The notes beneath the pieces were generated by a model, which had not been told where the DNA came from, did not search any database, and saw only the letters and a list, made by a program, of their open reading frames with translations. Below, one piece after another: positions 2,705 through 47,209 of a stretch of 64,000 bases of DNA. This DNA is from Leisingera sp. ANG-Vp (GTDB lineage: Bacteria > Pseudomonadota > Alphaproteobacteria > Rhodobacterales > Rhodobacteraceae): NCBI RefSeq assembly GCF_000813725.1, contig NZ_JWLD01000016.1:1-64000 (forward strand). Reading direction: 5' to 3'. Made by a program: the position numbers and the translations under genes. Each line of letters opens with the position of its first letter. Within the stretch, counting starts at the first letter, position 1.

Positions 2705-5059
2705 TCAGTTCGGGATCAGCGCCGGCACGATGGTCACGATCGACGGGAACAGCCACAGAATGCCGATGCCCACCACCTGGATCAGCACAAACGGCACGAT
2801 CCCGCGGTAGATGTGGCCCGTGGTCACCTCCTTGGGTGCCACCCCGCGCAGGTAGAACAGCGCAAACCCGAAGGGCGGCGTCAGGAACGAGGTCTGCAGG
2901 TTCACCGCCACCATGATGGTCACCCATTTCGGATCAAACGAGCCGCCATAGATCACCGGCCCGACAATCGGGATCACGATGTAGATGATCTCCAGGAAGT
3001 CCAGCACAAAGCCCAGAATGAACAGCACGATCATCACGATGATGAAAACTGTCATCTCATTGTCGAAGCTCTTCAGGAACTGCTGGATATAGTGCTCGCC
3101 GCCAAAGGAGATCACCACCAGGTTCAACAGCTGCGAGCCGATCAGGATGGTGAAGACCATCGAGGTCACCTTGGCGGTTTCCCGCACCACCGGGGTCAGC
3201 ACGCCGGACTTGAACAGCACCCAGCAGCCGTACAGCAGGCCGAACAGCGCATAGAGGTAGGTGGCATAAGCTGCAAAGAAGGCAATCCAGCTTTCAACGC
3301 TCACCCCGCCCTGGTTCACACGCAGGTCGAAGTTCATGCCGATCAGGATGCACAGCATGACGGCAAAGGTGGACCAGATGATGATCCTGCCCGACTTGCC
3401 CTCATCCTGCAGCTTGCGGTAGGCCGCCAGCATGATGGCGCCGCCTGCCCCCAGCGCCGCAGCCGGCGTCGGGTTGGTGATGCCGCCCAGGATCGAGCCC
3501 AGCACCGCAACGATCAGCACCAGCGGCGGGAACACCACCCGGATCAGATCGTTCCTGGCGCAGCGCGCAGCCGCCTCGCGGCAGCCGTAAAGCGCCAGCA
3601 GCACCGGCAGCGCGATCCACAGCACCGTCGCACCGGCAGACGTGGTTGGCGCAATCGCCACCAGATCCACCAGCGCGATCAGCAGGATGCCGATGGACCC
3701 CAGGATCAGCGGCTTGGCATCGCGCGACGGCGCCACACCGCGGCCGAATGCCAGCACCAGACCCAGCAGAACCATGATCACGGAGATGCCGGTGCCAATG
3801 GGGGCTGCGGCAGCGATCTTGGCGTCGCGGGCGGCGGCGATTTCTTCCTCGCTCAGCTTCTCCGCCAGGGTCACACCGCCTGCGGCATCAATGGCTTCCT
3901 GCTCTGCCACCGCGGCGTCCCAGGCCTCCTGCCCGTGCAGGTCGATCATCGAGGCCTTGCACTCGGCGCCCACATTGGTGCGCAGAGAAGCGGTTTCACC
4001 GGCGTCCGAGAAGGCCGAGACGGTGATGTTCTGGCTGCCGATCACGTTGAAGCTCGACAGCAGCACCGCGCCGCCGATCAGCGCGGCAGGCACGCCCAGG
4101 AACCAGATCAGGCCTTCGTTGCGGGTGATCACCTCGCCGGTGCCGCCTTCGATGGTGACGGCCGGCGCCTTATGCGGGTTCAGCAGCGCATAGCCGAAGG
4201 CATAGATCGCATAAAGCAGCGCCAGCAGGATGCCCGGCAGCAGCGCCGCCTGGAACAGGGTGCCGACCGAAACCACCGCTGGCTCGCCCAGATAAGTGAG
4301 CGCGTCGGAGCAGCCTGCCTCCATCGCGCGGGTCTCCTGCGCGGTGGAATAGAGGTCGCCCGCCAGCGTGCCCAGAAGAACGATCACAATCGACGGCGGA
4401 ATGATCTGGCCCAGGGTGCCCGAGGCTGCGATCACACCGGTCGCCAGTTCCGGCGAGTAGTTGTTGCGCAGCATGGTTGGCAGCGCCAGCAGGCCCATGG
4501 TCACCACGGTTGCGCCGACGATGCCGGTGGAGGCCGCCAGGAAGGCGCCCACAACCACAATCGATACCGCCAGGCCGCCCGGCAGCGGACCAAAGACGCG
4601 CGCCATGGTGGTCAAGAGGTCGTTGGCGATCTTGGAACGCTCCAGGGTGATGCCCATCAGCACGAACATCAGCACCGCCAGCAGGGTTTCAATCGACGCA
4701 CCCGCCAGCACCCGCTCGTTCATCCGGTTGACGATGAAGGAGATGTTGCGGTCCAGCGCCACTTCCCAGCCCTGCGCGAACACAGGTTCTGCCAGTCTTG
4801 GCAAGTCCGGGTAGCGGAAGACCGACACCTTGTCGGGCCTGATGCCCGAATTCAGCAGGTCGCGGTAGGCCTGCGACGAGGTATCGATCGCCTGGTGGAT
4901 CAGGATGCCGGCACTGTCCAGCGCCGCGATGATCCCGAAGGAGATGATCCCGGCACCGCCGATGGCAAAGGCCACCGGGAAGCCGGAAAGGATGCCCCCG
5001 AAGAGGCAGAAGAATACGATGAGCAGGCCGATCTCGACGCCATCAAGTCCAAATAGCAT
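2705..5059 (-). CDS. TRAP transporter large permease subunit, enlarged DctM type
   Basis: The large membrane subunit of a TRAP transporter, which imports an organic anion delivered by the periplasmic binding protein using the sodium gradient. It starts like DctM (GLLIVFFCLFGGILSGFPVAFAIGG) and carries the DctM signatures GTLGQIIPPSIVIVLLG near residue 210 and LQTSFLTPPFGFALFY near residue 725. At 784 residues it is far longer than the usual 425-440. The extra length includes a segment at about 60-105 and a long central insertion with several extra hydrophobic helices and a charged soluble stretch near residues 360-430. It follows the small subunit by 15 bp and is the last gene of a binding protein-small-large operon. 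Long DctM variants are known in marine alphaproteobacteria; the role of the insertion is unknown. Confidence 0.9.
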   Translation of the reverse strand: MLFGLDGVEIGLLIVFFCLFGGILSGFPVAFAIGGAGIISFGIIAALDSAGILIHQAIDTSSQAYRDLLNSGIRPDKVSVFRYPDLPRLAEPVFAQGWEVALDRNISFIVNRMNERVLAGASIETLLAVLMFVLMGITLERSKIANDLLTTMARVFGPLPGGLAVSIVVVGAFLAASTGIVGATVVTMGLLALPTMLRNNYSPELATGVIAASGTLGQIIPPSIVIVLLGTLAGDLYSTAQETRAMEAGCSDALTYLGEPAVVSVGTLFQAALLPGILLALLYAIYAFGYALLNPHKAPAVTIEGGTGEVITRNEGLIWFLGVPAALIGGAVLLSSFNVIGSQNITVSAFSDAGETASLRTNVGAECKASMIDLHGQEAWDAAVAEQEAIDAAGGVTLAEKLSEEEIAAARDAKIAAAAPIGTGISVIMVLLGLVLAFGRGVAPSRDAKPLILGSIGILLIALVDLVAIAPTTSAGATVLWIALPVLLALYGCREAAARCARNDLIRVVFPPLVLIVAVLGSILGGITNPTPAAALGAGGAIMLAAYRKLQDEGKSGRIIIWSTFAVMLCILIGMNFDLRVNQGGVSVESWIAFFAAYATYLYALFGLLYGCWVLFKSGVLTPVVRETAKVTSMVFTILIGSQLLNLVVISFGGEHYIQQFLKSFDNEMTVFIIVMIVLFILGFVLDFLEIIYIVIPIVGPVIYGGSFDPKWVTIMVAVNLQTSFLTPPFGFALFYLRGVAPKEVTTGHIYRGIVPFVLIQVVGIGILWLFPSIVTIVPALIPN

Positions 5060-5074
5060 GTTTCCGACGTCCCT

Positions 5075-6001
5075 TTAGTGCGTGCCTTCGTAGGCTTCTT
5101 CACCCTCTCCAAGGCTGTCCTTGTCGAGGTATTTGTTTTCACTGCCCTGGCCTTCGACGAACTCGAGGAACGAGCGGTAGAAGAAGGCGATGGCGTGCAG
5201 GAACACGAGGCCGGCAAAGGCGACCAGCAGGATCTTGAACAGAAAGTAGGCGTTGAAGCCGTTGGGGCTGAAACCGATGGTCTCGACGTTCCAGCGCAGG
5301 GCGCGGGACTTCATCACCAGCCGGTCCAGGCTGTCCGAGGCCGAGGGCTTCGGCACGATCAGGTGCCGCCACAGGAAAAACCAGCCGTACATCCAGGTGA
5401 GCACCGCCGCGGGCATCATGAACAGCAGCGAACCGATCATGTCCACAACCTTCTTGGCGCGGAAGCTGATACCGGAATAGATCAGGTCAACGCGCACATG
5501 GCCGCCCTGCACGAAGGTGTAAGTCACACAAAGGCAGACGACCAAGGCGTTGTAAAACTTCAGTTCCTCGGCAAACCAGCTGATGTCCTGGCTGAACGGA
5601 ATGCCAAAACCGAAGCTGATGTCAGGCCGGGCAAAAACGCGCTGCATGAAGACGATGATGATCTGCTGCAGAACCATCAGAAGGCCTGCCCAGGCGAAGA
5701 AACGGCCGACGGTATTGGCCACTCCCTCAAGCCCGCGCACCATGCCCCACATGAAGCCGCGGAAGTACAAGCCCACGCCGGTCAGCACCAGGAAGGTGGT
5801 GAAGACGACAAAAAAGAACTCGACCGAGCCGCCATAGTAGACAAAGCGCATGACCGAGGCCTTGTCGGACCAGTCAAGCCAGAGCTGCGGATGGGTGATG
5901 GCGTAGCCGAAATTGTAGAAGGCGCCTGCGAGGTTCTGGATCAGCCAGACAAGCCCGCCCCAGATTGCGCCAAAGAAGGTGATGCCACTCTCTTCCTGCA
6001 T
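5075..6001 (-). CDS. TRAP transporter small permease subunit, enlarged DctQ type
   Basis: The small (DctQ) subunit that pairs with the large permease in the membrane. The chosen ATG at 6001 follows GGGGGAAAC, so the product is 308 residues; the frame extends to 6049 but lacks a good ribosome binding site there. DctQ proteins are usually 160-200 residues. Here the DctQ-like core (LKFYNALVVCLCVTYTFVQGGHVRVDLIYSGISF, about 150-185) is preceded by about 140 residues with two or three extra hydrophobic segments and followed by a charged tail. It is 15 bp from the large permease gene and 139 bp from the binding-protein gene, with a hairpin in the latter gap. Both permeases are enlarged, which suggests they evolved as a matched pair. 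Confidence 0.88.
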   Translation of the reverse strand: MQEESGITFFGAIWGGLVWLIQNLAGAFYNFGYAITHPQLWLDWSDKASVMRFVYYGGSVEFFFVVFTTFLVLTGVGLYFRGFMWGMVRGLEGVANTVGRFFAWAGLLMVLQQIIIVFMQRVFARPDISFGFGIPFSQDISWFAEELKFYNALVVCLCVTYTFVQGGHVRVDLIYSGISFRAKKVVDMIGSLLFMMPAAVLTWMYGWFFLWRHLIVPKPSASDSLDRLVMKSRALRWNVETIGFSPNGFNAYFLFKILLVAFAGLVFLHAIAFFYRSFLEFVEGQGSENKYLDKDSLGEGEEAYEGTH

Positions 6002-20349: not shown

Positions 20350-20586
20350 GGGGTGTCCTTGCATTCTAAGCTCAGGCCTGGGTGATAAACCACCCATGCG
20401 CCGCGGGCAAGCCGCCAAGCCCCGCCCCGGCGTCCCCGGTACTGCAGAAAATCCGATTCAAATGCCAAGGACATTCCTTCCCGAGAACACTCGGCGAACA
20501 CCCGGAATTAACGCGGCCTGACTATTCCTTAACTCCGGTGCGGCTGCCAGCGGGAGGCTGCCAAGGAATTTGGGGAATACGGAACG

Positions 20587-22566
20587 ATGCCAAGCGGATA
20601 TCTTGTCCAGCTCGGAGACGGCTCACTGGATCATGGCGATACGATTACCGCCACCTATTCCTCGTTCACTACCGACACCAACCTCGGCACAGGAAACTGG
20701 AGCTGGACCGGATGGCACGGCGGCAGCCCCTATACCAGCGAAGTTGAAAGCGGCGTCTACTACCTGGCCACCGATGGCAACGTCTATTTCGTGCCCGACC
20801 TGGGGGCAGTGGACACGCTCACCTCGGCCACCGCGGACAATCCCCCTGCCTACACCGCCGAAGACGGCACCATAGAGGGCACCGCAGCAGGCGAGCTGAT
20901 CGACAACAGCTACACTGATAGCGACGGCGACCAGATCGACAACGGCAACGGCGGCGGCGTCTCCGGCAATCAGGACACGGTGGAGGCCGGCGCTGGCGAT
21001 GATACGGTGGATGCAGGCGCAGACAACGACCTGATCCTGGGCGGCGAAGGCGCGGACAGCCTGGAAGGCGGCGCTGGCGACGACACTATCTATGGCGACA
21101 GCAGCACCGAGGCCGGGCTGACCAGCTCGCAGCAAAGCATCGATGACAGCAATGTCACTGATACCACCAGCGGCTTCACCGTCACGGCCAAGGATGTATC
21201 CGGAAACACCAGTGCCGCAAACATTGATTACTATGACAACGCCTACGGGGTCGCGGGCGCGATCTCGGATTCCGACAGCGGAGTCGACGCGCAGCTAGGC
21301 TATGACAAGGCCTCAGGCATCTCCGAGGAACTGATTGTCGACTTTGATCAGGCAACAACCAGCGCCAGCGTCTCTTTCAAGCACCTCTACACTTCTTCAA
21401 ACGGTGAAGAAGGCCACTGGGAAATTTACAAAGACGGTGTTCTGGTCGCCCAAGGCGACTTTACCGAGGACGTCGCCGGCTCCGGCACCGGCACGGTAGA
21501 TATCAGCGGATACGGCGAATTCGATCAGCTGGTCTTGTCTGCCAATATTCAGACCGACCTGAGCGACGGTTCCGACTACATGATCTCGGACATCACCTTC
21601 ACGGTGCCGCCCGAAGATCCGGCGGCTGGCAACGACAGCATTTCCGGCGGCGACGGTGCCGATCTGATTTACGGCCAGAGCGGCGATGACACTCTGGACG
21701 GCGGCGGCGGCGCGGACACATTGGATGGGGGCGCCGGTGATGACAGCATTGTCGCCGGTGAAAGCGATTCAGCCACCGGCGGCGATGGCGACGACTATTT
21801 CACAATAGCCTCCGACAACGCCTTCATCACCGGCGACATAACAATCACAGGCGGTGATGACGGCGAAACAACAGGCGATACGCTGGACTTCAACGGCCAG
21901 CTGGATCCCGGCACACTGAACATCACCGATGACACGGGCGGCAGCAAGACCGGCACGGCCACGCTGCTGGACGGCAGCACCGTCTACTTCTCCGGCATTG
22001 AAAACATCATCTGCTTCACCGCAGGCACTCAGATCGCCACCACTGCCGGGCTGCGCGCCATCGAAACACTGCGCCCCGGCGACCTGGTGATCACCCGCGA
22101 CAACGGGCTGCAGCCGGTGCGCTGGATCAGTCAGTCCACGGTCCCGGCCGAGGGCAGCCTGGCACCGGTGCGCATCCCCGCGGGCCTCTTCGGTGCCGGA
22201 CGCGACCTGCTGATCTCGCCCCAGCACCGGATGCTCTATACCGGCGCAGGCGCCGCTCTCTTGTGCGGCGACAGCGAGGTGCTGGTCTCAGCCCTGCATC
22301 TGGTCAACGGCACCACAATCCGCCAGCAGCCCGGCGGCATGGTCACCTATGTGCATCTGCTGTTCGACCGGCATGAGATCATCTATGCCGAAGGCGCCCC
22401 GTCAGAGAGCTTCCATCCTGGGGTGCAAGCCGTTTCGGCCCTGGGCGCGCCGGTGCGCGAGGAATTGTTCCGGATCATGCCTGACCTGCGCTGGTGCACC
22501 GGCACCTATGGCGACACGGCGCGCCAATGCATGGCGCGCCATGAGGCGGTGTTTCTGGCTCAGTAA
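20587..22566 (+). CDS. RTX calcium-binding protein with C-terminal Hint domain
   Basis: A 659-residue acidic, Gly/Asp-rich protein. Hemolysin-type nonapeptide repeats (GGxGxDxxx) occur at about 126-170 and 350-405, for example GGAGDDTIYG and GGGGADTLDGGAGDDS. Between them, about 190-340, is a beta-sandwich-like region. The C-terminal part (from Cys476 in CFTAGTQIATTAGLRAIETLRPGDLVITRDNGLQPVRW) is a Hint_2-type domain, related to inteins and hedgehog autoprocessing domains. There is no N-terminal signal peptide, as expected for type I secretion. Such proteins are common in Roseobacters; no type I exporter is encoded in the window. Its last 7 bp overlap the convergent PBP1A gene. Confidence 0.88.
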   Translation: MPSGYLVQLGDGSLDHGDTITATYSSFTTDTNLGTGNWSWTGWHGGSPYTSEVESGVYYLATDGNVYFVPDLGAVDTLTSATADNPPAYTAEDGTIEGTAAGELIDNSYTDSDGDQIDNGNGGGVSGNQDTVEAGAGDDTVDAGADNDLILGGEGADSLEGGAGDDTIYGDSSTEAGLTSSQQSIDDSNVTDTTSGFTVTAKDVSGNTSAANIDYYDNAYGVAGAISDSDSGVDAQLGYDKASGISEELIVDFDQATTSASVSFKHLYTSSNGEEGHWEIYKDGVLVAQGDFTEDVAGSGTGTVDISGYGEFDQLVLSANIQTDLSDGSDYMISDITFTVPPEDPAAGNDSISGGDGADLIYGQSGDDTLDGGGGADTLDGGAGDDSIVAGESDSATGGDGDDYFTIASDNAFITGDITITGGDDGETTGDTLDFNGQLDPGTLNITDDTGGSKTGTATLLDGSTVYFSGIENIICFTAGTQIATTAGLRAIETLRPGDLVITRDNGLQPVRWISQSTVPAEGSLAPVRIPAGLFGAGRDLLISPQHRMLYTGAGAALLCGDSEVLVSALHLVNGTTIRQQPGGMVTYVHLLFDRHEIIYAEGAPSESFHPGVQAVSALGAPVREELFRIMPDLRWCTGTYGDTARQCMARHEAVFLAQ

Positions 22567-38328: not shown

Positions 38329-38405
38329 TGGCGCGGTTGACGGGGCTCGAACCCGCGACCCCCGGCGTGACAGGCCGGTACTCTAACCAACTGAGCTACA
38401 ACCGC
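38329..38405 (-). tRNA. tRNA-Asp (GTC), copy 1
   Basis: A 77-nt gene with encoded CCA. The acceptor stem pairs GCGGTTG with CAACCGC, the D arm is AGCTCAGTTGGTTAGAGT, and the anticodon loop CTGTCAC holds GTC. It is identical to the two copies that follow upstream on the transcript. Confidence 0.97.
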
Positions 38406-38472
38406 GCATGGGCCTTTCGGCTATGGTCCCCATCCGGGGCGGACCCTGAAGCACCAGGGCAGTGGATGAAAG

Positions 38473-38549
38473 TGGCGCGGTTGACGGGGCTCGAACCCGC
38501 GACCCCCGGCGTGACAGGCCGGTACTCTAACCAACTGAGCTACAACCGC
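38473..38549 (-). tRNA. tRNA-Asp (GTC), copy 2
   Basis: Same 77-nt sequence as copy 1, 67 bp away. The spacer carries the block GTCCCC-TCCGGGGCGGA-CCTG, also found in the other spacer, which shows that the unit arose by tandem duplication. Confidence 0.97.
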
Positions 38550-38631
38550 ACTTTCATCTAACACCGGCCTGTTGCCAGACCATGTCCCCTCCGGGGCGGA
38601 TCCTGTTTAACCTCAGGACGAGGCGCAGCAG

Positions 38632-38708
38632 TGGCGCGGTTGACGGGGCTCGAACCCGCGACCCCCGGCGTGACAGGCCGGTACTCTAACCAACTGAGCT
38701 ACAACCGC
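38632..38708 (-). tRNA. tRNA-Asp (GTC), copy 3 (promoter-proximal)
   Basis: Third identical copy, first in the direction of transcription and 82 bp from copy 2. A clean sigma-70 promoter lies 38 bp upstream and probably drives the whole array as one precursor. Confidence 0.97.
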
Positions 38709-39012: not shown

Positions 39013-40062
39013 TTAGGCGGCGCGCTGCGCCATCTTGGCTTGCACCGCGGCCACGGCAACCGCATCCGGAGCCGCGTTCTCTGCCTTGGCCTGGTTCAGG
39101 ATTGCCGCCATTGTGGCATCCAGCGCCTCCAGCTTTTCCGCAACAAACCCCTGAGGGTCCGAGATCCGCAGAATTTCCGTGGCCACATTGATGATACCGC
39201 CGCCATTGGCAACAAAATCCGGTGCGTAAAGAATACCGCGCCGGTGCAGCGCTTCGCCATCTGCAGCCGTGGCCAGCTGGTTGTTGGCACCGCCAGCAAC
39301 GATATCCGCCTTCAGCTGCGGAATCGTTACCTCATTCAGGATGCCGCCAACCGCGCAGGGCGCAAACACATCGGCTTCGACCGCATAGATCTGCTCCAGA
39401 GGCACCGCCCTGGCGCCGAATTCCGCAACCGCCTTCTCCACCCGGTCCGGGTCGATGTCCGTCACCACCACCCCTGCGCCGGCCTCATGCAAAAACCGGC
39501 AGAGATGCCAGCCGACATGGCCAAGCCCTTGCACCGCCACTGTCACCCCAGCCAGCACAGAACTGCCGTGTTTATGGACGCGGGCCGTGCGGATTGCGTT
39601 GAAAATGCCGCGTGCGGTAATCGGCGAGGGGTCGCCGCTGGCAAAATCGCCATCCGCCAGCCCGGCAACGAAAGCGGTTTCCTCCGCCATAACACCCATG
39701 TCCGCAGGGCTCATCCCCATATCCTCGGCCGTGATATAGCGGCCGTCCAGCGACTGGATCGCCCGGGCAAAGGCGCGCAGCAGTTCCGGTGTCTTCTGCG
39801 TGGCGGGATCCCCGATGATCACCGCCTTGCCGCCGCCCAGCGGCAGGCCCGCTGCGGCGTTCTTGTAGGTCATGCCTTCGCTCAGCCGCTCGACATCGGT
39901 CAGCGCCTCCGCCTCGCTGGCATAGGGGCGCATCCGCAGGCCCCCGGCCGCCGGGCCCAGGTGCGTCGAATGAATTGCAATAAAGCCCAGGAGCCCGGCC
40001 GAGGCCTCCTCGACGCGATAGATCTCTTCATGGGTGCTTGATGCAACGGCTGTCACTGTCAT
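39013..40062 (-). CDS. Glu/Leu/Phe/Val dehydrogenase (leucine dehydrogenase-like)
   Basis: A 349-residue NAD-dependent amino-acid dehydrogenase that oxidatively deaminates a branched-chain or aromatic amino acid to its 2-oxo acid. Catalytic motifs are MTYKNAAAGLPLGGGKAV (Lys67 and Lys79) and AEDMGMSPADM; the Rossmann domain has VAVQGLGHVGWHLCRFLHEAG at about 175-195. The start ATG at 40062 follows GGAGGAGCGGACAG. A divergent Lrp-family gene lies 131 bp away, the classic place for its regulator. Substrate preference (leucine or valine) is not decided by sequence. Confidence 0.9.
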   Translation of the reverse strand: MTVTAVASSTHEEIYRVEEASAGLLGFIAIHSTHLGPAAGGLRMRPYASEAEALTDVERLSEGMTYKNAAAGLPLGGGKAVIIGDPATQKTPELLRAFARAIQSLDGRYITAEDMGMSPADMGVMAEETAFVAGLADGDFASGDPSPITARGIFNAIRTARVHKHGSSVLAGVTVAVQGLGHVGWHLCRFLHEAGAGVVVTDIDPDRVEKAVAEFGARAVPLEQIYAVEADVFAPCAVGGILNEVTIPQLKADIVAGGANNQLATAADGEALHRRGILYAPDFVANGGGIINVATEILRISDPQGFVAEKLEALDATMAAILNQAKAENAAPDAVAVAAVQAKMAQRAA

Positions 40063-40193
40063 CTGTCCGCTCCTCCTCAACTTGCTCCAATGATAAGAGT
40101 GCGCCCGCGCCGGTTTTCACCAAAAAACTTTGCCATTCAAACAGGATTTAGCGATATCCTCTACGGAACTCCGAAACCGCAGGGGAAAACTCC

Positions 40194-40649
40194 ATGGATT
40201 CCATCGACCGCAAGATCGTGGCCGCGCTCCAGCGCAACGGCCGGCTGAAAATCTCGGAACTGTCGGAGATGGTCGGCCTGTCACCGACCCCCTGCGCGCG
40301 CCGGGTTGCCAACCTCGAGGAAAGCGGCGTCATCTGCGGCTACTCGGCCCGGGTCGACCAGGCCAAGCTGGGGCTGCCGGTCACCATCTTTGTTGCGGTT
40401 GAGCTGGACCGGCAATCCACCGAAGCGCTCAGCGCTTTTGAAAGCGCAGTGCGGCAGTTCGACCAGGTGATGGAATGCTATCTGATGACCGGCACACGGG
40501 ATATCCTATTGCGGGTCGTGGCCGAGGATCTGCCGGATTTCGACCGGTTTCTGGAGGACCGGCTGATGCGGGTGCCGGGCATCCGCAACACCCGCTCGAG
40601 CTTCACGTTGCGCACGATGATCCGCCGCGACGCCCTGCCCGCCTGCTAA
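40194..40649 (+). CDS. Lrp/AsnC-family transcriptional regulator
   Basis: A 151-residue regulator with an N-terminal winged helix (1-55, IDRKIVAALQRNGRLKISELSEMVGLSPTPCARRVANLEESG) and a C-terminal RAM ligand-binding domain (about 65-145, MECYLMTGTRDILLRVVAEDLPDF). Such proteins form octamers that sense amino acids. It is divergent from the amino-acid dehydrogenase gene and probably controls it in response to its substrate. A possible promoter is TTGCCA at 40130-40135 with GATATC 17 bases on. Confidence 0.93.
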   Translation: MDSIDRKIVAALQRNGRLKISELSEMVGLSPTPCARRVANLEESGVICGYSARVDQAKLGLPVTIFVAVELDRQSTEALSAFESAVRQFDQVMECYLMTGTRDILLRVVAEDLPDFDRFLEDRLMRVPGIRNTRSSFTLRTMIRRDALPAC

Positions 40650-40783
40650 CCGGTTCACGGAACAGGCAGAAATGTGTTAAGCTGAAACCACAGGACAAGC
40701 CTGCCCGGACGGATGCGGCTCTTGCAAGGAGCTGTCTTCCGTTTCTGCCGGAGCAGGACAATAAAGGGCAAGTGGGGCAAGAC

Positions 40784-41323
40784 ATGGCACGAGCATCAAG
40801 CAAAACCAGCACATCCGCGCGCAAAACCAGCACGCGCAAATCAACCTCCCGCAAGAGCGGAACGCTGACCGCAGCCGCTGGGAAACCCGCGGCCTCCAAG
40901 CCGCGCACAGCAAAGGCACCGCTGCCCGAGCTGCCGGAGGTCAAACCCGCCGCCAAGCCGGCTGCCGCTCCAGAACCGGTTGTTGTCGAAACTGCCACGC
41001 CGGTGGTTTCCGCTCCGGAACTTGGCAAGAAAGAGCTGGTGGAACAGGCGGTTGAACGTTCCGGCATCAAGAAACGCGATGCCAAACCGGTGGTCGAGGC
41101 GGTATTGGCACTGCTGGGCGAAGCGGTCGCGGAAGGCCGCGAGCTGAACCTCAAACCTTTCGGAAAACTGCGCATCAACCGCAGCCAGGAACGCAGCAAC
41201 GGCAAGGTTTTTGTCTGCAAGCTGCGCCAGCCTGAAGCCACCGCAGAAGCCGGGAAAGAAAATGCGGGAGAAGACAAAGAATCTTCGGCGGACCCTCTTG
41301 CGGAGGCCGCAGCAGGCCGTTAA
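40784..41323 (+). CDS. HU/IHF-fold DNA-binding protein with long basic N-terminal tail
   Basis: A 179-residue protein. Residues 1-95 are disordered: first rich in Lys, Ser, Thr and Arg (RKTSTRKSTSRKSG), then in Pro and Ala. Residues about 100-160 form an HU-like domain (ELGKKELVEQAVERSGIKKRDAKPVVEAVLALLGEAVAEGRELNLKPFGKLRINRSQE), followed by a short acidic tail. Ordinary HU proteins have about 90 residues. The tail recalls the basic tails of histone-like proteins and may bind DNA or RNA, which is inference. The ATG at 40784 is in the middle of a longer frame that starts inside the Lrp gene. A tRNA-Val gene begins 14 bp after the stop, so the two could be cotranscribed. Confidence 0.85.
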   Translation: MARASSKTSTSARKTSTRKSTSRKSGTLTAAAGKPAASKPRTAKAPLPELPEVKPAAKPAAAPEPVVVETATPVVSAPELGKKELVEQAVERSGIKKRDAKPVVEAVLALLGEAVAEGRELNLKPFGKLRINRSQERSNGKVFVCKLRQPEATAEAGKENAGEDKESSADPLAEAAAGR

Positions 41324-41336
41324 AAGCCTGCCTCAC

Positions 41337-41411
41337 GGGTGATTAGCTCAGTGGTAGAGCGCTTCGTTCACATCGAAGATGTCAGGAGTTCAAATCTCTT
41401 ATCACCCACCA
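41337..41411 (+). tRNA. tRNA-Val (CAC)
   Basis: A 75-nt gene with encoded CCA. Acceptor stem GGGTGAT/ATCACCC, D stem GCTC/GAGC, anticodon stem CTTCG/CGAAG with loop TTCACAT, so the anticodon is CAC. A strong terminator follows at 41443. Confidence 0.97.
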
Positions 41412-41442
41412 TCATTCAGGCTGCCCAAGATGGCATGCTGAG

Positions 41443-41482
41443 ACGGGCGCTCCCAATTCTGGTTGAGCGCCCGTTGTTTTTT
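41443..41482 (+). terminator. Rho-independent terminator of the tRNA-Val (CAC) transcript
   Basis: ACGGGCGCTC (41443-41452) pairs perfectly with GAGCGCCCGT (41465-41474) over a 12-nt loop, followed by TGTTTTTT. Confidence 0.85.
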
Positions 41483-41632
41483 CCGGCCCGTATTGCCAGC
41501 CGCCGAAGCCAGGAACCACTCCTGCAAGGCAGGCAGAATACCCCTCCTCGGCGCGGGTGCCGCTGCGCCGCCTTTGCAGCGCAACAGCCTGTTTCATAAG
41601 CCTGACGCGGTCCGGTTTGGGCCGCCCGCCAG

Positions 41633-43585
41633 TCAGACCGCCGGAACCGCAGTGTCCAGATAGAATTGATAGGCCTCCGGCACATCGGCAATCGAGTCGT
41701 AAGTCGAAGTCAGCTTGCCATCCGCCCCGAATTCAATGAGCTTGACCTCCCACGGGTCGCTGCCGTCCAAGTCCACTTCGAGCTGCGCAATGCGCTCCTG
41801 GTTCTGGTAGATGCCAAGCAGCACATCGCTGTCATCCTGAATGGTCTGCCGCAGCACCAGCTCGCCTCCTTCGTAGGCAGACATGATGCTGTTCCATTCA
41901 AACTCGTCGGCCGTGTCCACTTTCTCGCTGAACGTGCGGGTGCCGTTTTCGAACTGAATGCGGGTCCAGGCCCCGTTGTCAGACTGGATAACGCGGTCTG
42001 TCAGCATGCCATATGGGCCGTAGAAGCTCTGGATTGCCTCCCAGTCCTCCACATTTTCACCGTCCGACTGGAAGGTCGCAGTGCGGAAGCCGTCCTGGAA
42101 GAATTCCGACTTGGCCGTGCCATTGTCAAAGTCGGTCTGACGTTCGGCCAGCCGGCCGTCCTGGTCAAAAAAGCTGGCAGAGCTTGTCCAGTCAGCGGCA
42201 TTCTCCCGATCCTCAAGGAACGTGGCCTTGCGGGTGCCGTATTCGAAAGTTTCAGTCTTCAGGATTCCGTTGTCGAAATTGGTGACACGTTCCTCCAGGC
42301 TGCCATTAGCATCGAAGGTGGTCTCGATCGTCTCCCACTCTTCTGCGCTGGCGTTGAAGGCGTCCGATTGGAAGGTCGATTTCCGCACGCCGTCCTGAAA
42401 ATCCTCCAGCTTGGTACTGCCATTATCAAACCGGGTCATGCGCAGATCCAGCTCACCTTCGGGGGTGTAGAAGGTTTCGATACTGTCCCACGCGGCCACG
42501 TTCTGCTCGTCCGTCTCATAGACCGACCTGCGGAAGCCGTCTTCGAACCTCTCCTCCTTGATGATGCCATCGTCATAAAGAGTAACACGCCCGCCCATTT
42601 GGCCATCCGGGCCAAAGAATGTCTCAATGCGCTCCCAAGCAGCGGCGTTTCCTTCGTCGAACTGGGATGTCATTGTGCGGGCGCCGCCTTCGAACCGCTC
42701 TGCTTTGATGATGCCATCATCATAAAAGGTAACCCGCTCGGCCAACCTGCCGTCCGGGCCAAAGAATGTTTCAATGCTGTCCCAGCCAGCCACGTTCCCT
42801 TCGTCGAACCGGGACGTCACTGTGCGGATGCCTCCCTCGAACTGCTCCGCTTTGATAGTGCCGTCGTCAAAATATGTGACGCGCTCGGCCACTCCGCCAT
42901 CCGGATCAAAGAATGTGTCGATGCTCTCCCAAGCGGCCACATGCCCCTCGTCGAACTTGGATGTCACCGTGCGGGCGCCCGCCTCGAACTGCTCCGCTTT
43001 GATGATGCCGTCGTCATAGTGGGTGACGCGCTCGGCCAGTTCCCCATCGGAGTCATAGAAGCTTTCGATCTGCCCCCATGCCTTTGCATCGGAGTGATCC
43101 GTTTCCGTCATGGAGTGCCGGACACCCGCTTCAAAGTTCTCTGCTTTGAAAACGCCGTTGTCATACTCGGTCAAACGCTGGGCAAAGCTGCCGTTTTCAT
43201 CCCAGATCCTGACGATGGAGGCCCAGGAGTGAAGCCCGAGCCCGCCGTTCGCAGGGCTTTCGTCGAACAATTGGATCGTCTCAGGCACACCGTTGTAGTA
43301 GTTGATGATCTCCCGCTGGTAATCATCATCCAGTTTTTCGGACTCCGTGATCTCCCCGTGACCATTGTATTTGACCGACAGTGTCTGAATCGGCAGGGCA
43401 TCTTCCGGGTCCTCCAATTCGAACCGGATCAGGATGTCATCGCGGTACGCTTCGTGCTCGGTGTGGCCGTCATCAAAGAGGGTATAAACATCCTTGGACG
43501 TATACGTGCTGTGCGTGGCTTCCACCGTTGTGCGCTCGGCCCAGTCAAACGCATCTTCCAGATCGTACTCAGTTGTAATCGGCAT
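41633..43585 (-). CDS. Protein of tandem 49-residue repeats, function unknown
   Basis: A 650-residue, acidic, soluble protein without signal peptide or membrane helix. From residue 121 onward it consists of about eleven repeats with a period of 49: the conserved Trp lies at 121, 170, 219, 268, 317, 366, 417, 466, 515, 564 and 612. A typical unit reads W-x-x-I-E-T-F-F-G-P-D-G, then L-x-E-R-V-T, then Y-D-D-G-I-I-K-x-E-x-F-E-x-G-x-R. Units 2-6 are nearly alike; outer ones are worn. The short D-G turns recall MORN or YD-type beta-hairpin repeats, but the period fits neither. Residues 1-120 are unlike the repeats except for a faint likeness near residue 15. GC content is lower than around it and it lies between two tRNA-Val genes. 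No family is recognised. A 7-bp hairpin covers the binding site and start codon. Confidence 0.85.
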   Translation of the reverse strand: MPITTEYDLEDAFDWAERTTVEATHSTYTSKDVYTLFDDGHTEHEAYRDDILIRFELEDPEDALPIQTLSVKYNGHGEITESEKLDDDYQREIINYYNGVPETIQLFDESPANGGLGLHSWASIVRIWDENGSFAQRLTEYDNGVFKAENFEAGVRHSMTETDHSDAKAWGQIESFYDSDGELAERVTHYDDGIIKAEQFEAGARTVTSKFDEGHVAAWESIDTFFDPDGGVAERVTYFDDGTIKAEQFEGGIRTVTSRFDEGNVAGWDSIETFFGPDGRLAERVTFYDDGIIKAERFEGGARTMTSQFDEGNAAAWERIETFFGPDGQMGGRVTLYDDGIIKEERFEDGFRRSVYETDEQNVAAWDSIETFYTPEGELDLRMTRFDNGSTKLEDFQDGVRKSTFQSDAFNASAEEWETIETTFDANGSLEERVTNFDNGILKTETFEYGTRKATFLEDRENAADWTSSASFFDQDGRLAERQTDFDNGTAKSEFFQDGFRTATFQSDGENVEDWEAIQSFYGPYGMLTDRVIQSDNGAWTRIQFENGTRTFSEKVDTADEFEWNSIMSAYEGGELVLRQTIQDDSDVLLGIYQNQERIAQLEVDLDGSDPWEVKLIEFGADGKLTSTYDSIADVPEAYQFYLDTAVPAV

Positions 43586-43614
43586 AAGAAAACTTTCTTA
43601 AGTTGCAATGCAAC
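43585..43614 (-). promoter_or_regulatory. Hairpin over the start of the repeat-protein gene, plus adjacent palindrome
   Basis: In the mRNA TAAGAAA (43600-43594) pairs with TTTCTTA (43591-43585) over a 2-nt loop, or with slight slippage a larger one. The stem contains the only purine-rich binding-site candidate (AAGAAAG) and the A of the start codon. Just upstream, GTTGCA-A-TGCAAC (43602-43614) is a perfect dyad. Both suggest control of this gene. Confidence 0.4.
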
Positions 43615-43814
43615 GCGGGTAATGAAGAGTTAACATGGCAAAAATATGTCTGAACCTAAGGACTTAGCAGGCTCCTTGGCGATCCTGCAGATTTAACGGC
43701 TTGCTGATGCTCCAGCCCCGCCACGCCGTCCCGGTTCAGCAAACGTGCATTCGGGGTTCCGGTCCGGCCCGCTTGCCGCTACCAATTCCTCATCACTCAG
43801 GCAGGGGGCACCAC

Positions 43815-44384
43815 ATGCAATTTCCGAAGATCTGGCTGCTGCGCCACGGACAGACCGAATGGAACGCCGAGCGCCGCATCCAGGGGCAGCTGGAATCGCC
43901 GCTGACGCCGCTGGGGGTCGCGCATGCCCGCAAGCAGGCTGAGCTGATGCGCCCGGCGCTTGCCCTGGGCCCGTCCTGCTACGCCTCGCCGCTGGGCCGC
44001 GCCCAGCAGACCGCGGACATCGCCCTGGGCGGAGCCCCGTTTGTGACCGATGCGCGCCTGGCCGAGGCTTATGCCGGCGCTTTCCAAGGGATGACCTGGG
44101 ACGATGTCGCCCAGCAGTACCCCGGGATCCACGCCGCCAACCCGCAGGCTCTGGACCTGTTCTGCGAAGCACCGGGCGGCGAAGGCTATGCCAGCTTCCA
44201 CGGCCGCATTCTCGACTTCATGCTGTGCCTGCCCGGCCCGTCAGTGGTGGTGGCGCATGGGCTTTTGGGGCAAGTGATGCGCGGTATCGTCTGCGGTCTG
44301 AGCCGCAGCCAGATGGCGGAACTGCCCAATGGCCAGGGCTGCGTCTATGTGCTGGAAAACGGGACGGAAACTGTTTTGCAGTGA
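43815..44384 (+). CDS. Histidine phosphatase family protein (phosphoglycerate-mutase-like)
   Basis: A 189-residue phosphatase of the PhoE/GpmB type. The catalytic His11 lies in LLRHGQTEWNAERRIQGQ; the second His is in VVVAHGLLG and the acid/base Glu in RLAEAYAGAFQGM. Such enzymes act on a wide range of phosphomonoesters, so the substrate is unknown. The ATG at 43815 has GGGGGC before it; the frame that opens at 43701 is not coding. It is divergent from the repeat-protein gene, 229 bp away, and codirectional with the tRNA-Val gene that follows. Confidence 0.9.
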   Translation: MQFPKIWLLRHGQTEWNAERRIQGQLESPLTPLGVAHARKQAELMRPALALGPSCYASPLGRAQQTADIALGGAPFVTDARLAEAYAGAFQGMTWDDVAQQYPGIHAANPQALDLFCEAPGGEGYASFHGRILDFMLCLPGPSVVVAHGLLGQVMRGIVCGLSRSQMAELPNGQGCVYVLENGTETVLQ

Positions 44385-44419
44385 ATGCACCCGCGGCGCA
44401 AAAAATCTGCTTTTTTCTC

Positions 44420-44448
44420 TTGCACCGCCCGGCGGCATTGTCTAAATC
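44420..44448 (+). promoter_or_regulatory. Putative promoter of tRNA-Val (TAC)
   Basis: TTGCAC (44420-44425), 17-bp spacer, TAAATC (44443-44448). It ends 10 bp before the tRNA, a normal distance. Confidence 0.45.
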
Positions 44449-44458
44449 CCCGCTCATC

Positions 44459-44534
<76 letters not shown>

Positions 44535-44797: not shown

Positions 44798-47209
44798 TCA
44801 GTGGGCCGTGGCCCCTGCCCCTTTGCCGGTCTCCTTCAGCGCCGCCTTGGCGGCAGCGGCCTCTTCGGCTTCCTCGTCCCATTCGATGGGATCCGGCTGC
44901 GACACCAGCGCATGCTTCAGCACTTCCGACACGTGAGACACGGGAATAATCTCCAGCCCCTCTTTCACGTTGTCCGGAATATCCGGCAGGTCCTTTTCGT
45001 TCTCCTGCGGGATCAGCACCGTCTTGATACCGCCGCGCAGCGCCGCCAGCAGCTTTTCCTTCAACCCGCCGATGGCCAGCGCGTTGCCGCGCAGTGTGAC
45101 CTCGCCGGTCATCGCAATGTCCTTGCGCACAGGAATCTGGGTCAGCACCGAGACGATGGAGGTGACCATCGCCAGGCCGGCCGACGGCCCATCCTTGGGC
45201 GTGGCGCCTTCCGGCACGTGCACGTGGATGTCCCAATTGTCGAACCGCGGCGGCTTGATGCCCAGCTTCGGCGACACCGAGCGCACATAGGAAGACGCCG
45301 CTTCAATCGACTCCTTCATCACGTCGCCCAGCTTGCCGGTGGTCTTCATCCGGCCCTTGCCCGGCAGGCGCAGCGCTTCAATCGACAGCAGCTCACCGCC
45401 CACCGAGGTATAGGCCAGCCCGGTCACCACACCAACCTGATCCTCTTTCTCGGCCAGGCCAAAGCGGAACTTCGGCACGCCCAGGAAATCGTCAAGGTTC
45501 TCCGGCGTGACGGTCACGCTGTCGGCCTCTTTCTTGACGATCTTGGTCAGCGACTTGCGCGCCACCTTGGCGATCTCGCGCTCCAGATTCCGCACGCCCG
45601 CCTCGCGGGTGTAGGTGCGGATCATCTCGGTCACCGCATCCTCAGTCAGCTCGAACTCCTTGGCCTTCAGGCCGTGGTTCTTCACCTGCTTGGAAATCAG
45701 GTGCTGCTTGGCGATCTCGCGCTTTTCATCCTCGGTGTAGCCCGAGAGCGGAATGATCTCCATCCGGTCCAGCAGCGGGCCCGGCATGTTGTAGCTGTTG
45801 GAGGTGGTCAGGAACATCACGTTCGAGAGGTCATACTCGACCTCCAGATAGTGATCCATAAAGGTGTTGTTCTGTTCCGGATCCAGCACCTCCAGCATCG
45901 CCGAGGCCGGGTCGCCGCGGAAATCCTGGCCCATCTTGTCGATTTCATCGAGCAGGATCAGCGGGTTGGTGGTCTTGGCCTTCTTCAGCGCCTGGATGAT
46001 CTTGCCCGGCATCGAACCGATATAAGTGCGGCGGTGGCCGCGGATCTCGGACTCGTCGCGCACGCCGCCCAGGGAAATACGGATAAACTCGCGCCCGGTG
46101 GCTTTTGCAACCGATTTGCCCAGCGAGGTCTTACCCACGCCGGGAGGGCCGACGAGGCAGAGGATCGGCCCCTTCAGTTTGGCCGAACGCTGCTGCACCG
46201 CCAGGTATTCGACGATCCGCTCCTTGACCTTCTCCAGGCCATAGTGATCCGCATCCAGGATCTCCTGCGCCTTGTTCAGGTCCTTCTTGACGCGGGACTT
46301 GTTGCCCCACGGGATCGACAGCATCCAGTCGAGGTAGTTGCGCACGACGGTGGCTTCCGCCGACATCGGCGACATGTTCTTAAGCTTCTTCAGCTCCGCA
46401 TCGGCCTTCTCGCGTGCCTCTTTCGAGAGCTTGGTGGCGGCGATTTTCTCTTCCAGCTCGGCGATTTCGCCGGCACCCTCTTCGCCGTCGCCCAGCTCCT
46501 TCTGAATGGCCTTCATCTGCTCATTCAGATAATACTCGCGCTGGGTCTTCTCCATCTGGGATTTGACGCGGGTCTTGATCTTCTTCTCGACCTGCAGGAC
46601 CGACATTTCGCCCTGCATCAGGCCATAGACCTTCTCCAGCCGCTCGCTGACAGAGAGCGTCTCCAGCAGTTCCTGCTTGCGGTCGACCTCAATGCCCAGA
46701 TGGCCGGCCACCAGGTCGGCCAGCTTGGCCGGCTCGGCGGTCTCACCCACGGCAGACAGGGCTTCCTCGGGGATGTTCTTGCGCACCTTGGCATAGCGCT
46801 CGAACTCATCGCCGACGGTGCGCACCAGCGCCTCGGTGGTGGTGATGTCGCCTGGAATCTCGGTCAGCTCTTCGGCCTTGGCCTCGAAGAAGTTGTCGTT
46901 TTCCAGAAATTCAGTGATCTGCACGCGGGTCTGGCCCTCGACCAGCACCTTGACGGTGCCGTCGGGCAGCTTCAGCAGCTGCAGCACATTGGCCAGCACA
47001 CCGGTGGTGTAAATGCTGTCGGTATCAGGATCATCCTCGGAAGGGTCGATCTGGCTGGACAGCAGGATCTGCTTGTCATCCGCCATCACCTCTTCCAGGG
47101 CGCGCACCGATTTTTCCCGGCCCACGAACAGCGGCACGATCATGTGGGGGAAGACCACGATATCGCGCAGCGGAAGTACGGGGTAGGAGGAATTGAGTGG
47201 CTCTTGCAT
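44798..47209 (-). CDS. lon: ATP-dependent protease Lon
   Basis: A cytoplasmic hexameric protease that unfolds and degrades damaged and regulatory proteins. It has 803 residues in the usual order: N-terminal substrate domain (1-200), coiled-coil (about 200-285), AAA+ module with Walker A GPPGVGKT (354-361), Walker B LILLDEID (417-424), and a C-terminal protease domain with the catalytic dyad Ser676 (PKDGPSAG) and Lys719 (GGLKEK). It stands alone, with a bidirectional hairpin after it. A possible heat-shock-like promoter lies upstream but is weakly supported. Confidence 0.97.

What the first reader, a model, noticed from the sequence alone, without database searches (positions are those of the whole stretch)
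41633..43585. Large protein built from about eleven 49-residue repeats, in a locus bounded by two tRNA-Val genes
Conserved Trp residues recur at 121, 170, 219, 268, 317, 366, 417, 466, 515, 564 and 612, giving a strict 49-residue period with a W...FF-x-P-D-G...R-V-T-x-Y-D-D-G-x-x-K-x-E-x-F-E-x-G-x-R core. Middle units are nearly identical, so expansion is recent. There is no signal, membrane helix or known domain, GC is lower than around it, and tRNA genes on both sides suggest an insertion hot spot. The unit length fits no repeat family I know.
Basis: partly seen in the sequence, partly recalled or inferred. Interest (0 to 1): 0.72.

Follow-up and report, generated by a model that had tools for sequence, protein, structure and literature searches.

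The report
Free-standing array of secreted-protein repeats
A bacterium, probably a marine Leisingera, carries a large acidic protein made almost only of a 49-residue sheet-forming repeat that elsewhere forms the tail of giant, probably exported proteins, so it is probably an exported extracellular protein itself rather than a wholly unknown invention.

Summary
The repeat is real: the 650-aa ORF at 41633-43585(-) holds nine clear units of 49-51 residues, found also by a profile built without them, plus degenerate ones. 'Nearly identical, recent' is wrong: units 2-5 share 62-73% of residues with their neighbours, with 0.6-1.0 silent changes per site. The unit is not unique. It forms the C-terminal block of 12 long Roseobacteraceae proteins, several RTX- or serralysin-type, and nine free-standing arrays in eight genomes. 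Related, shorter units stand near type I secretion genes on 4 of 4 rhizobial plasmids opened, but not on the Leisingera plasmid. A confident AlphaFold2 model has four strands per unit; Foldseek's nearest are OspA single-layer sheets and MORN/Rhs-type repeats. Pfam MORN_2 just passes. All nine free-standing proteins lack Lys/Arg in the last 20 residues, against 4 of 70 annotated controls, as RTX-type tails tend to. Best explanation: an RTX-less type I secretion substrate forming a long extracellular beta ribbon. The site is a true insertion hot spot, empty in 17 of 21 genus genomes. Export was not shown.

The parts
41633..43585 (-). free-standing repeat protein gene, 650 aa, net charge -90, no Cys
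43226..43585 (-). residues 1-120: short N-cap and two degenerate units (W15)
   Evidence: weak profile matches at 34-63 and 72-102; other free-standing members also begin almost directly with a unit, starts chosen by me
43079..43225 (-). unit 1 (residues 121-169)
   Evidence: E 2.3e-18 with a profile free of window units
42932..43078 (-). unit 2 (170-218)
   Evidence: E 3.6e-18
42785..42931 (-). unit 3 (219-267)
   Evidence: E 7.8e-19
42638..42784 (-). unit 4 (268-316)
   Evidence: E 5.2e-20; modelled
42491..42637 (-). unit 5 (317-365)
   Evidence: E 1.3e-20; modelled
42338..42490 (-). unit 6 (366-416, 51 residues)
   Evidence: E 1.7e-18; modelled
42191..42337 (-). unit 7 (417-465)
   Evidence: E 6.1e-22; modelled
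42044..42190 (-). unit 8 (466-514)
   Evidence: E 1.4e-16; modelled
41897..42043 (-). unit 9 (515-563)
   Evidence: E 1.8e-11
41753..41896 (-). unit 10, strongly diverged (564-611), aligned with the same place in four other free-standing members
   Evidence: only 570-588 matches weakly
41636..41752 (-). C-terminal tail (612-650) without Lys/Arg in its last 20 residues; proposed type I secretion signal
   Evidence: PMC8861453
41337..41411 (+). tRNA-Val (CAC), left edge of the variable interval
40784..41323 (+). HU-type DNA-binding protein gene, left neighbour
   Evidence: PF00216 match; start
43830..44384 (+). histidine phosphatase gene, right edge of the variable interval (stretch used as query)
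   Evidence: PF00300 match; found in 21 of 21 genus genomes
44459..44534 (+). tRNA-Val (TAC)

Best explanation
The gene encodes a free-standing member of an alphaproteobacterial repeat family that elsewhere serves as a block near the C-terminus of RTX-type and other long, probably type I-secreted proteins. Each 49-residue unit folds as four antiparallel strands with Gly/Asp turns, and successive units add on to one long single-layer beta ribbon (about 50 strands; at the usual 4.8 A per strand roughly 25 nm, inference). The protein has no N-terminal signal that I can see. It most likely leaves the cell through one of the genome's PrtD-type exporters by its Lys/Arg-free C-terminal tail, and acts outside as an acidic scaffold or adhesive protein of the cell surface or matrix. 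Shown: the repeat, its C-terminal place in 12 long proteins, a confident beta model of five units, the tail composition, the variable insertion at this site. Inferred: export, single-layer form over the whole length, extracellular role, binding partner.
For: Same unit at the C-terminus of 12 long proteins: the last profile match ends 3-38 residues from the end in 11, and in the twelfth the array goes on by eye. Pfam finds RTX nonapeptides in 3 of 4 long unit-bearing proteins scanned, one of them with serralysin-type domains. Related arrays stand near type I ATPase and HlyD genes on 4 of 4 rhizobial plasmids opened, of 7 rhizobial records matched. No Lys/Arg in the last 20 residues in 9 of 9 free-standing proteins (two are nearly identical) and 7 of 12 long ones, against 4 of 70 annotated CDS and 10 of 100 mechanically chosen ORFs; D/L/T/V/I/F enriched too (free-standing p 0.0011, long p 3.8e-7). 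RTX tails are described as rich in D, L, T, V, I, F and poor in R, K, E, P (PMC8861453, passages). PrtD-type exporter over cut-off in 14 of 14 host genomes searched. Model pLDDT 92, pTM 0.81.
Against: No exporter gene next to this gene or, by eye, next to the other free-standing genes read; none among the annotated genes within 15 kb of the giant on the Leisingera S132 plasmid either. The exporter is in 21 of 21 genus genomes, so its presence discriminates nothing. No RTX nonapeptides. The [FLI][VAI] ending is met in 1 of 8 free-standing proteins (p 0.33) and low R+K+E+P is not significant for them (3.62 vs 4.99, p 0.064). The full-length model ends in a helix (low confidence), while RTX tails are reported helix-poor. 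In five relatives and the four rhizobial proteins other sequence follows the array. One long host (L152) has no Pfam match at all at E <= 1e-5.
Confidence: 0.6

Rival explanations
1. It is a cytoplasmic MORN_2-type repeat protein (as in YwqK-like proteins, name recalled) acting as a binding scaffold or an antitoxin- or immunity-like protein inside the cell.
For: MORN_2 passes its cut-off in the window protein (30.7 vs 29.6) and in the G018 ortholog (49.0 vs 29.6); fold neighbours include many MORN proteins; no adjacent exporter.
Against: In long relatives the unit sits on RTX/serralysin-type proteins and related arrays lie near exporters; tails are free of Lys/Arg; net charge -90; no partner toxin gene seen at the site by eye.
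Confidence: 0.2
2. It is a decaying fragment of a giant RTX-type protein, cut loose by rearrangement and no longer functional.
For: Homologous with the C-terminal block of a giant in the same genome; patchy presence: 2 of 21 genus genomes at this site.
Against: Intact 650-codon frame; dN/dS 0.10-0.40 in the five unit pairs that could be computed, of six; ortholog at the same site in another genome with its own intact frame; nine intact free-standing members, most with a similar start and all with a Lys/Arg-free tail.
Confidence: 0.07
3. The unit is a non-RTX folding and export module: Asp-rich turns bind calcium outside the cell, so the array folds only after export and pulls the chain out, as RTX blocks are thought to do.
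For: Array lies next to the C-terminus in 12 long hosts; invariant or nearly invariant W1, G12, D22, G24, G34, D43 over 52 units; strongly acidic, Cys absent in eight of nine free-standing proteins.
Against: No calcium site tested; the model folds confidently without ions; long hosts read here often keep RTX repeats as well.
Confidence: 0.25

Closest known systems
MORN_2 repeat (Pfam PF07661, 22 residues)
   Same: Gly-turn hairpin repeat; window protein and G018 ortholog pass the curated cut-off; fold search against viral models returns many MORN proteins.
   Different: Period 49, four strands per unit and an invariant Trp; no single stretch passes alone; 5 of 7 free-standing proteins scanned are below the cut-off or unmatched.
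RTX / type I-secreted giant proteins (HemolysinCabind, Cadherin_4/5, Big_9, tandem-95)
   Same: Same unit (49-54 residues) near the C-terminus; Lys/Arg-poor tail.
   Different: Window protein has only the repeat block: no RTX nonapeptides, no cadherin-like or Ig-like domains.
OspA single-layer beta-sheet
   Same: Best Foldseek match is an engineered OspA, E 3.1e-8.
   Different: TM on the query at most 0.57 among the 50 rows shown, rmsd near 10 A, 15% identity for the best row; local hairpin geometry is shared, overall shape is not. OspA is a lipoprotein (recalled); this protein shows no such signal by eye.
YD/Rhs and teneurin shells
   Same: Hairpins with Y/F-D-x-x-G turns; Foldseek matches with E about 1e-5; RHS_repeat hit in 1 of 20 two-unit rows.
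   Different: Longer unit; no RHS_repeat match and no toxin domain in this protein. Rhs and teneurin form closed shells (recalled).

Membership tests
MORN_2 (PF07661) | whole-protein score over Pfam cut-off 29.6 | tested here: met
   30.7 bits, no single stretch passing; G018 ortholog 49.0; paralog 21, G166 28.3, G021 25.2 below; G305 and G024 none
MORN_2 (PF07661) | 22-residue period | tested here: not met
   period 49 (147 bases)
RTX protein | calcium-binding nonapeptide repeats (PF00353) | tested here: not met
   absent from the Pfam matches up to E 10
Type I secretion substrate | C-terminal tail of RTX-type composition | tested here: inconclusive
   free-standing proteins: Lys/Arg absence (p 9.7e-6) and DLTVIF enrichment (p 0.0011) met; low R+K+E+P (p 0.064) and [FLI][VAI] ending (p 0.33) not (8 proteins against 70 annotated CDS; the proteins are related, so p overstates)
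Type I secretion substrate | exporter genes adjacent | tested here: not met
   none beside the window gene by eye; present near the rhizobial relatives
Type I secretion substrate | actual export by an ABC exporter | not testable with these tools
   needs an experiment
OspA-like single-layer beta-sheet | open antiparallel ribbon exposed on both faces | tested here: inconclusive
   20-strand model, pLDDT 92; OspA best hit but TM <= 0.57, rmsd about 10 A; solvent exposure not computed
RHS/YD repeat (PF05593) | match to the RHS_repeat model | tested here: not met
   no match in the window protein; 1 of 20 two-unit rows at E <= 0.1

The most novel reading that the evidence does not exclude
A repeat family that Pfam and NCBIfam do not model acts as an RTX-independent type I export and folding module: acidic four-strand units that build a single-layer beta ribbon outside the cell, used both as a tail on giant proteins and, set free, as a secreted ribbon protein that comes and goes at a tRNA-bounded insertion site.
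Probability: 0.25. Interest if true: 0.62.

Novelty: new variant of a known kind. Interest (0 to 1): 0.42.

Why it matters
RTX-like proteins without signal peptides were the most abundant exported proteins of the relative Ruegeria pomeroyi (PMC2953401, passages). The repeat described here is a recurrent block, without a Pfam or NCBIfam model of its own in the searches made, of such proteins in this bacterial family. Naming it would improve annotation, and its free-standing form offers a small piece with which to ask what the block does. If it is exported without RTX repeats, it would help separate the roles of RTX and tail in type I secretion. A natural ribbon of about 50 strands would also interest people who engineer single-layer sheets from OspA.

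Tried and rejected
Phage origin: no match in 50,697 phage records and no confirmed relative in viral contigs (53 pattern stretches). Recent duplication: rejected by silent-site distances. Relatives by peptide patterns in genome contigs: none of 17 stretches with the single protein, 3 of 49 with an alignment. Class-level profiles found only the own genome among 385; a phylum draw at a looser cut found 11 of 398, all in the same class, so class-level absence is a matter of threshold and sampling. Full-length single-sequence folding was poor (pLDDT 49) and was replaced by five units with a 5-row alignment. Order of duplications against the G018 ortholog is unresolved: mean unit identity 44.8% and 45.5% within, 43.2% between. 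The first tail control (100 ORFs picked mechanically) may hold frames that are not genes, so I repeated it with 70 annotated CDS; the result stands. The first unit profile held window units, so I repeated it without them. Literature: eight searches listed no paper that, by title and start of abstract, describes this repeat; four papers were opened, by passages only, so absence from print is not established. DUF5793 (below its cut-off) was not pursued.

Full report
What is there. The ORF at 41633-43585 on the minus strand codes for 650 residues. All eleven stated Trp positions are right. Nine units of 49-51 residues (121-563) match at E <= 2.5e-20 with a profile that contains them and at E 6e-22 to 1.8e-11 with one built from 48 units of other proteins. 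A strongly diverged tenth unit (564-611) and a tail (612-650) follow; residues 1-120 are degenerate repeats. Over 52 diverse units W1, G24, G34 and D43 are invariant, G12 and D22 nearly so.

How old. Neighbours among units 2-5 differ by 0.62-1.01 silent changes per site with dN/dS 0.17-0.30; two other pairs give 0.10 and 0.40, and 317/366 could not be computed because silent sites are saturated. Identity of the best three pairs is 69-73%.

Where else. The own genome has a second free-standing copy (contig C109, about 403 aa) and a giant protein (open frame 3082 aa) whose end carries four units. In the genus 4 of 21 genomes match at E <= 0.001. A draw of 295 family genomes, nearly all from different genera, gave 12 with a unit at E <= 1e-6. 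Class sampling gave only the own genome of 385; a phylum draw at 1e-5 gave 11 of 398, all the same class. The genus is taken as Leisingera because genome G018 of the same genus has a contig of exactly the length (155,271) of the Leisingera sp. S132 plasmid that matches the query, with the match at the same place; the window itself is unnamed.

Two architectures. Nineteen proteins read from the genus and family searches carry the unit. Seven are free-standing; two more came later, identical in 562 of 563 residues and in loci 98% alike, so they count as about one. Start codons are my choice. Twelve are long, with the array at the C-terminus: the last match ends 3-38 residues from the end in 11; in the twelfth (L078) the array goes on by eye. 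Four long unit-bearing proteins were scanned with Pfam: three have RTX nonapeptides, of which one has cadherin-like and Ig-like repeats and one serralysin-type peptidase domains; the fourth (L152) matches nothing at E <= 1e-5. Exceptions: in L153-L157 and in the four rhizobial proteins read other sequence follows the array.

Secretion. Seven of eight plasmid records matched are rhizobial, at 21-27% identity. Four were opened: all four have a type I ATPase and a HlyD gene downstream, directly in three and after one gene in the fourth. Their units are shorter (about 38 residues by eye). The Leisingera plasmid was opened too: no such genes are annotated within 15 kb of its giant. The free-standing genes have no exporter neighbour by eye. 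PrtD-type exporters over the curated cut-off are in 14 of 14 host genomes searched, of 15 then known, but also in 21 of 21 genus genomes, so this permits and does not support. Tails: against 70 annotated CDS, Lys+Arg in the last 20 residues average 0.00 in eight free-standing proteins (one of the twins left out) and 0.50 in twelve long ones, against 2.43 (p 9.7e-6 and 9.6e-6). D/L/T/V/I/F: 9.75 and 11.50 against 6.77 (p 0.0011 and 3.8e-7). R+K+E+P: 3.62 (p 0.064) and 1.67 (p 3.6e-6) against 4.99. The [FLI][VAI] ending: 1 of 8 (p 0.33) and 3 of 12 (p 0.012) against 3 of 70. The long proteins thus fit the published RTX tail pattern well and the free-standing ones in part. Within the free-standing proteins, 9-20% of 20-mers have no Lys/Arg in six of seven, 2% in G305. 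The proteins are related, so the p values overstate. A 19-residue hydropathy scan of the nine free-standing proteins peaks at 1.05, below the usual membrane-helix level (threshold recalled), and no N-terminal signal is seen by eye; no signal predictor was run.

Structure. Residues 268-514 with a 5-row alignment gave pLDDT 92.2, pTM 0.81 and 20 strands, four per unit. Foldseek against the PDB ranks OspA variants first (best E 3e-8), then teneurin and Rhs proteins among further OspA rows; 117 matches at E <= 0.001. TM on the query is at most 0.57 in the 50 rows shown, with rmsd near 10 A for the best, so the local hairpin ribbon is shared, not the whole shape. Against viral models many MORN-repeat proteins appear. 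By sequence MORN_2 barely passes.

The site. The histidine phosphatase gene is in 21 of 21 genus genomes. In 17 the tRNA-Val(CAC) starts 201-212 bases before the aligned start of the phosphatase: an empty site. The own genome and G018 carry this gene (nine and seven full units). In G004 and G010 the same CAC tRNA lies some 14 and 13 kb from the phosphatase; the stretch between holds an integrase-like gene and a DUF927 protein in G004, a resolvase and a cytosine methylase in G010. A second integrase in G010 lies beyond the TAC tRNA, outside this interval. In G006 and G008 the TAC tRNA is some 900 bases further from the phosphatase than in most others, not examined. So the interval is a hot spot, but how this gene came in is not seen.

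Judgement. A real, coherent repeat family of a known type (hairpin repeat), without a database model or paper found here, tied to RTX-type and probably type I-secreted proteins. The free-standing form is the unusual part. Export, calcium and function are untested.

Noticed in passing
window 38329-38708, 39013-44534, 44798-47209; L012: Compared with G018 (lon, dehydrogenase, Lrp-type gene, tRNA-Val, repeat gene, phosphatase, tRNA-Val, tRNA-Asp genes), the window has the same block with the flanks swapped and turned (tRNA-Asp genes left on minus, lon right on minus), as if a block of about 6 kb were inverted. The HU gene is in the window but there seems no room for it in G018.
   Followed up: partly
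L079/L080 (G085 contig C6): A 10,320-residue open frame with RTX repeats by eye ends in twelve matches to the same repeat, several nearly identical: here recent expansion does fit.
   Followed up: partly
L074 (G281), 3014-5887: A protein with serralysin-type peptidase domains whose C-terminal part is nine units of this repeat.
   Followed up: partly
L154, L155 (G988, G829): Long proteins with another N-terminal domain (looks like a glycoside hydrolase by eye, not tested) and many shorter, weakly matching repeats before a different end.
   Followed up: no
window 20533-22563: ORF over a tandem repeat at 21680-21745 that would code for RTX-like GGDDTLDGG, a possible further type I secretion substrate.
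   Followed up: no
L038, L039, L160, L161: Two genus genomes carry 13-14 kb at the same tRNA-Val/phosphatase interval: one with an integrase-like gene and a DUF927 protein, one with a resolvase and a C-5 cytosine methylase.
   Followed up: partly
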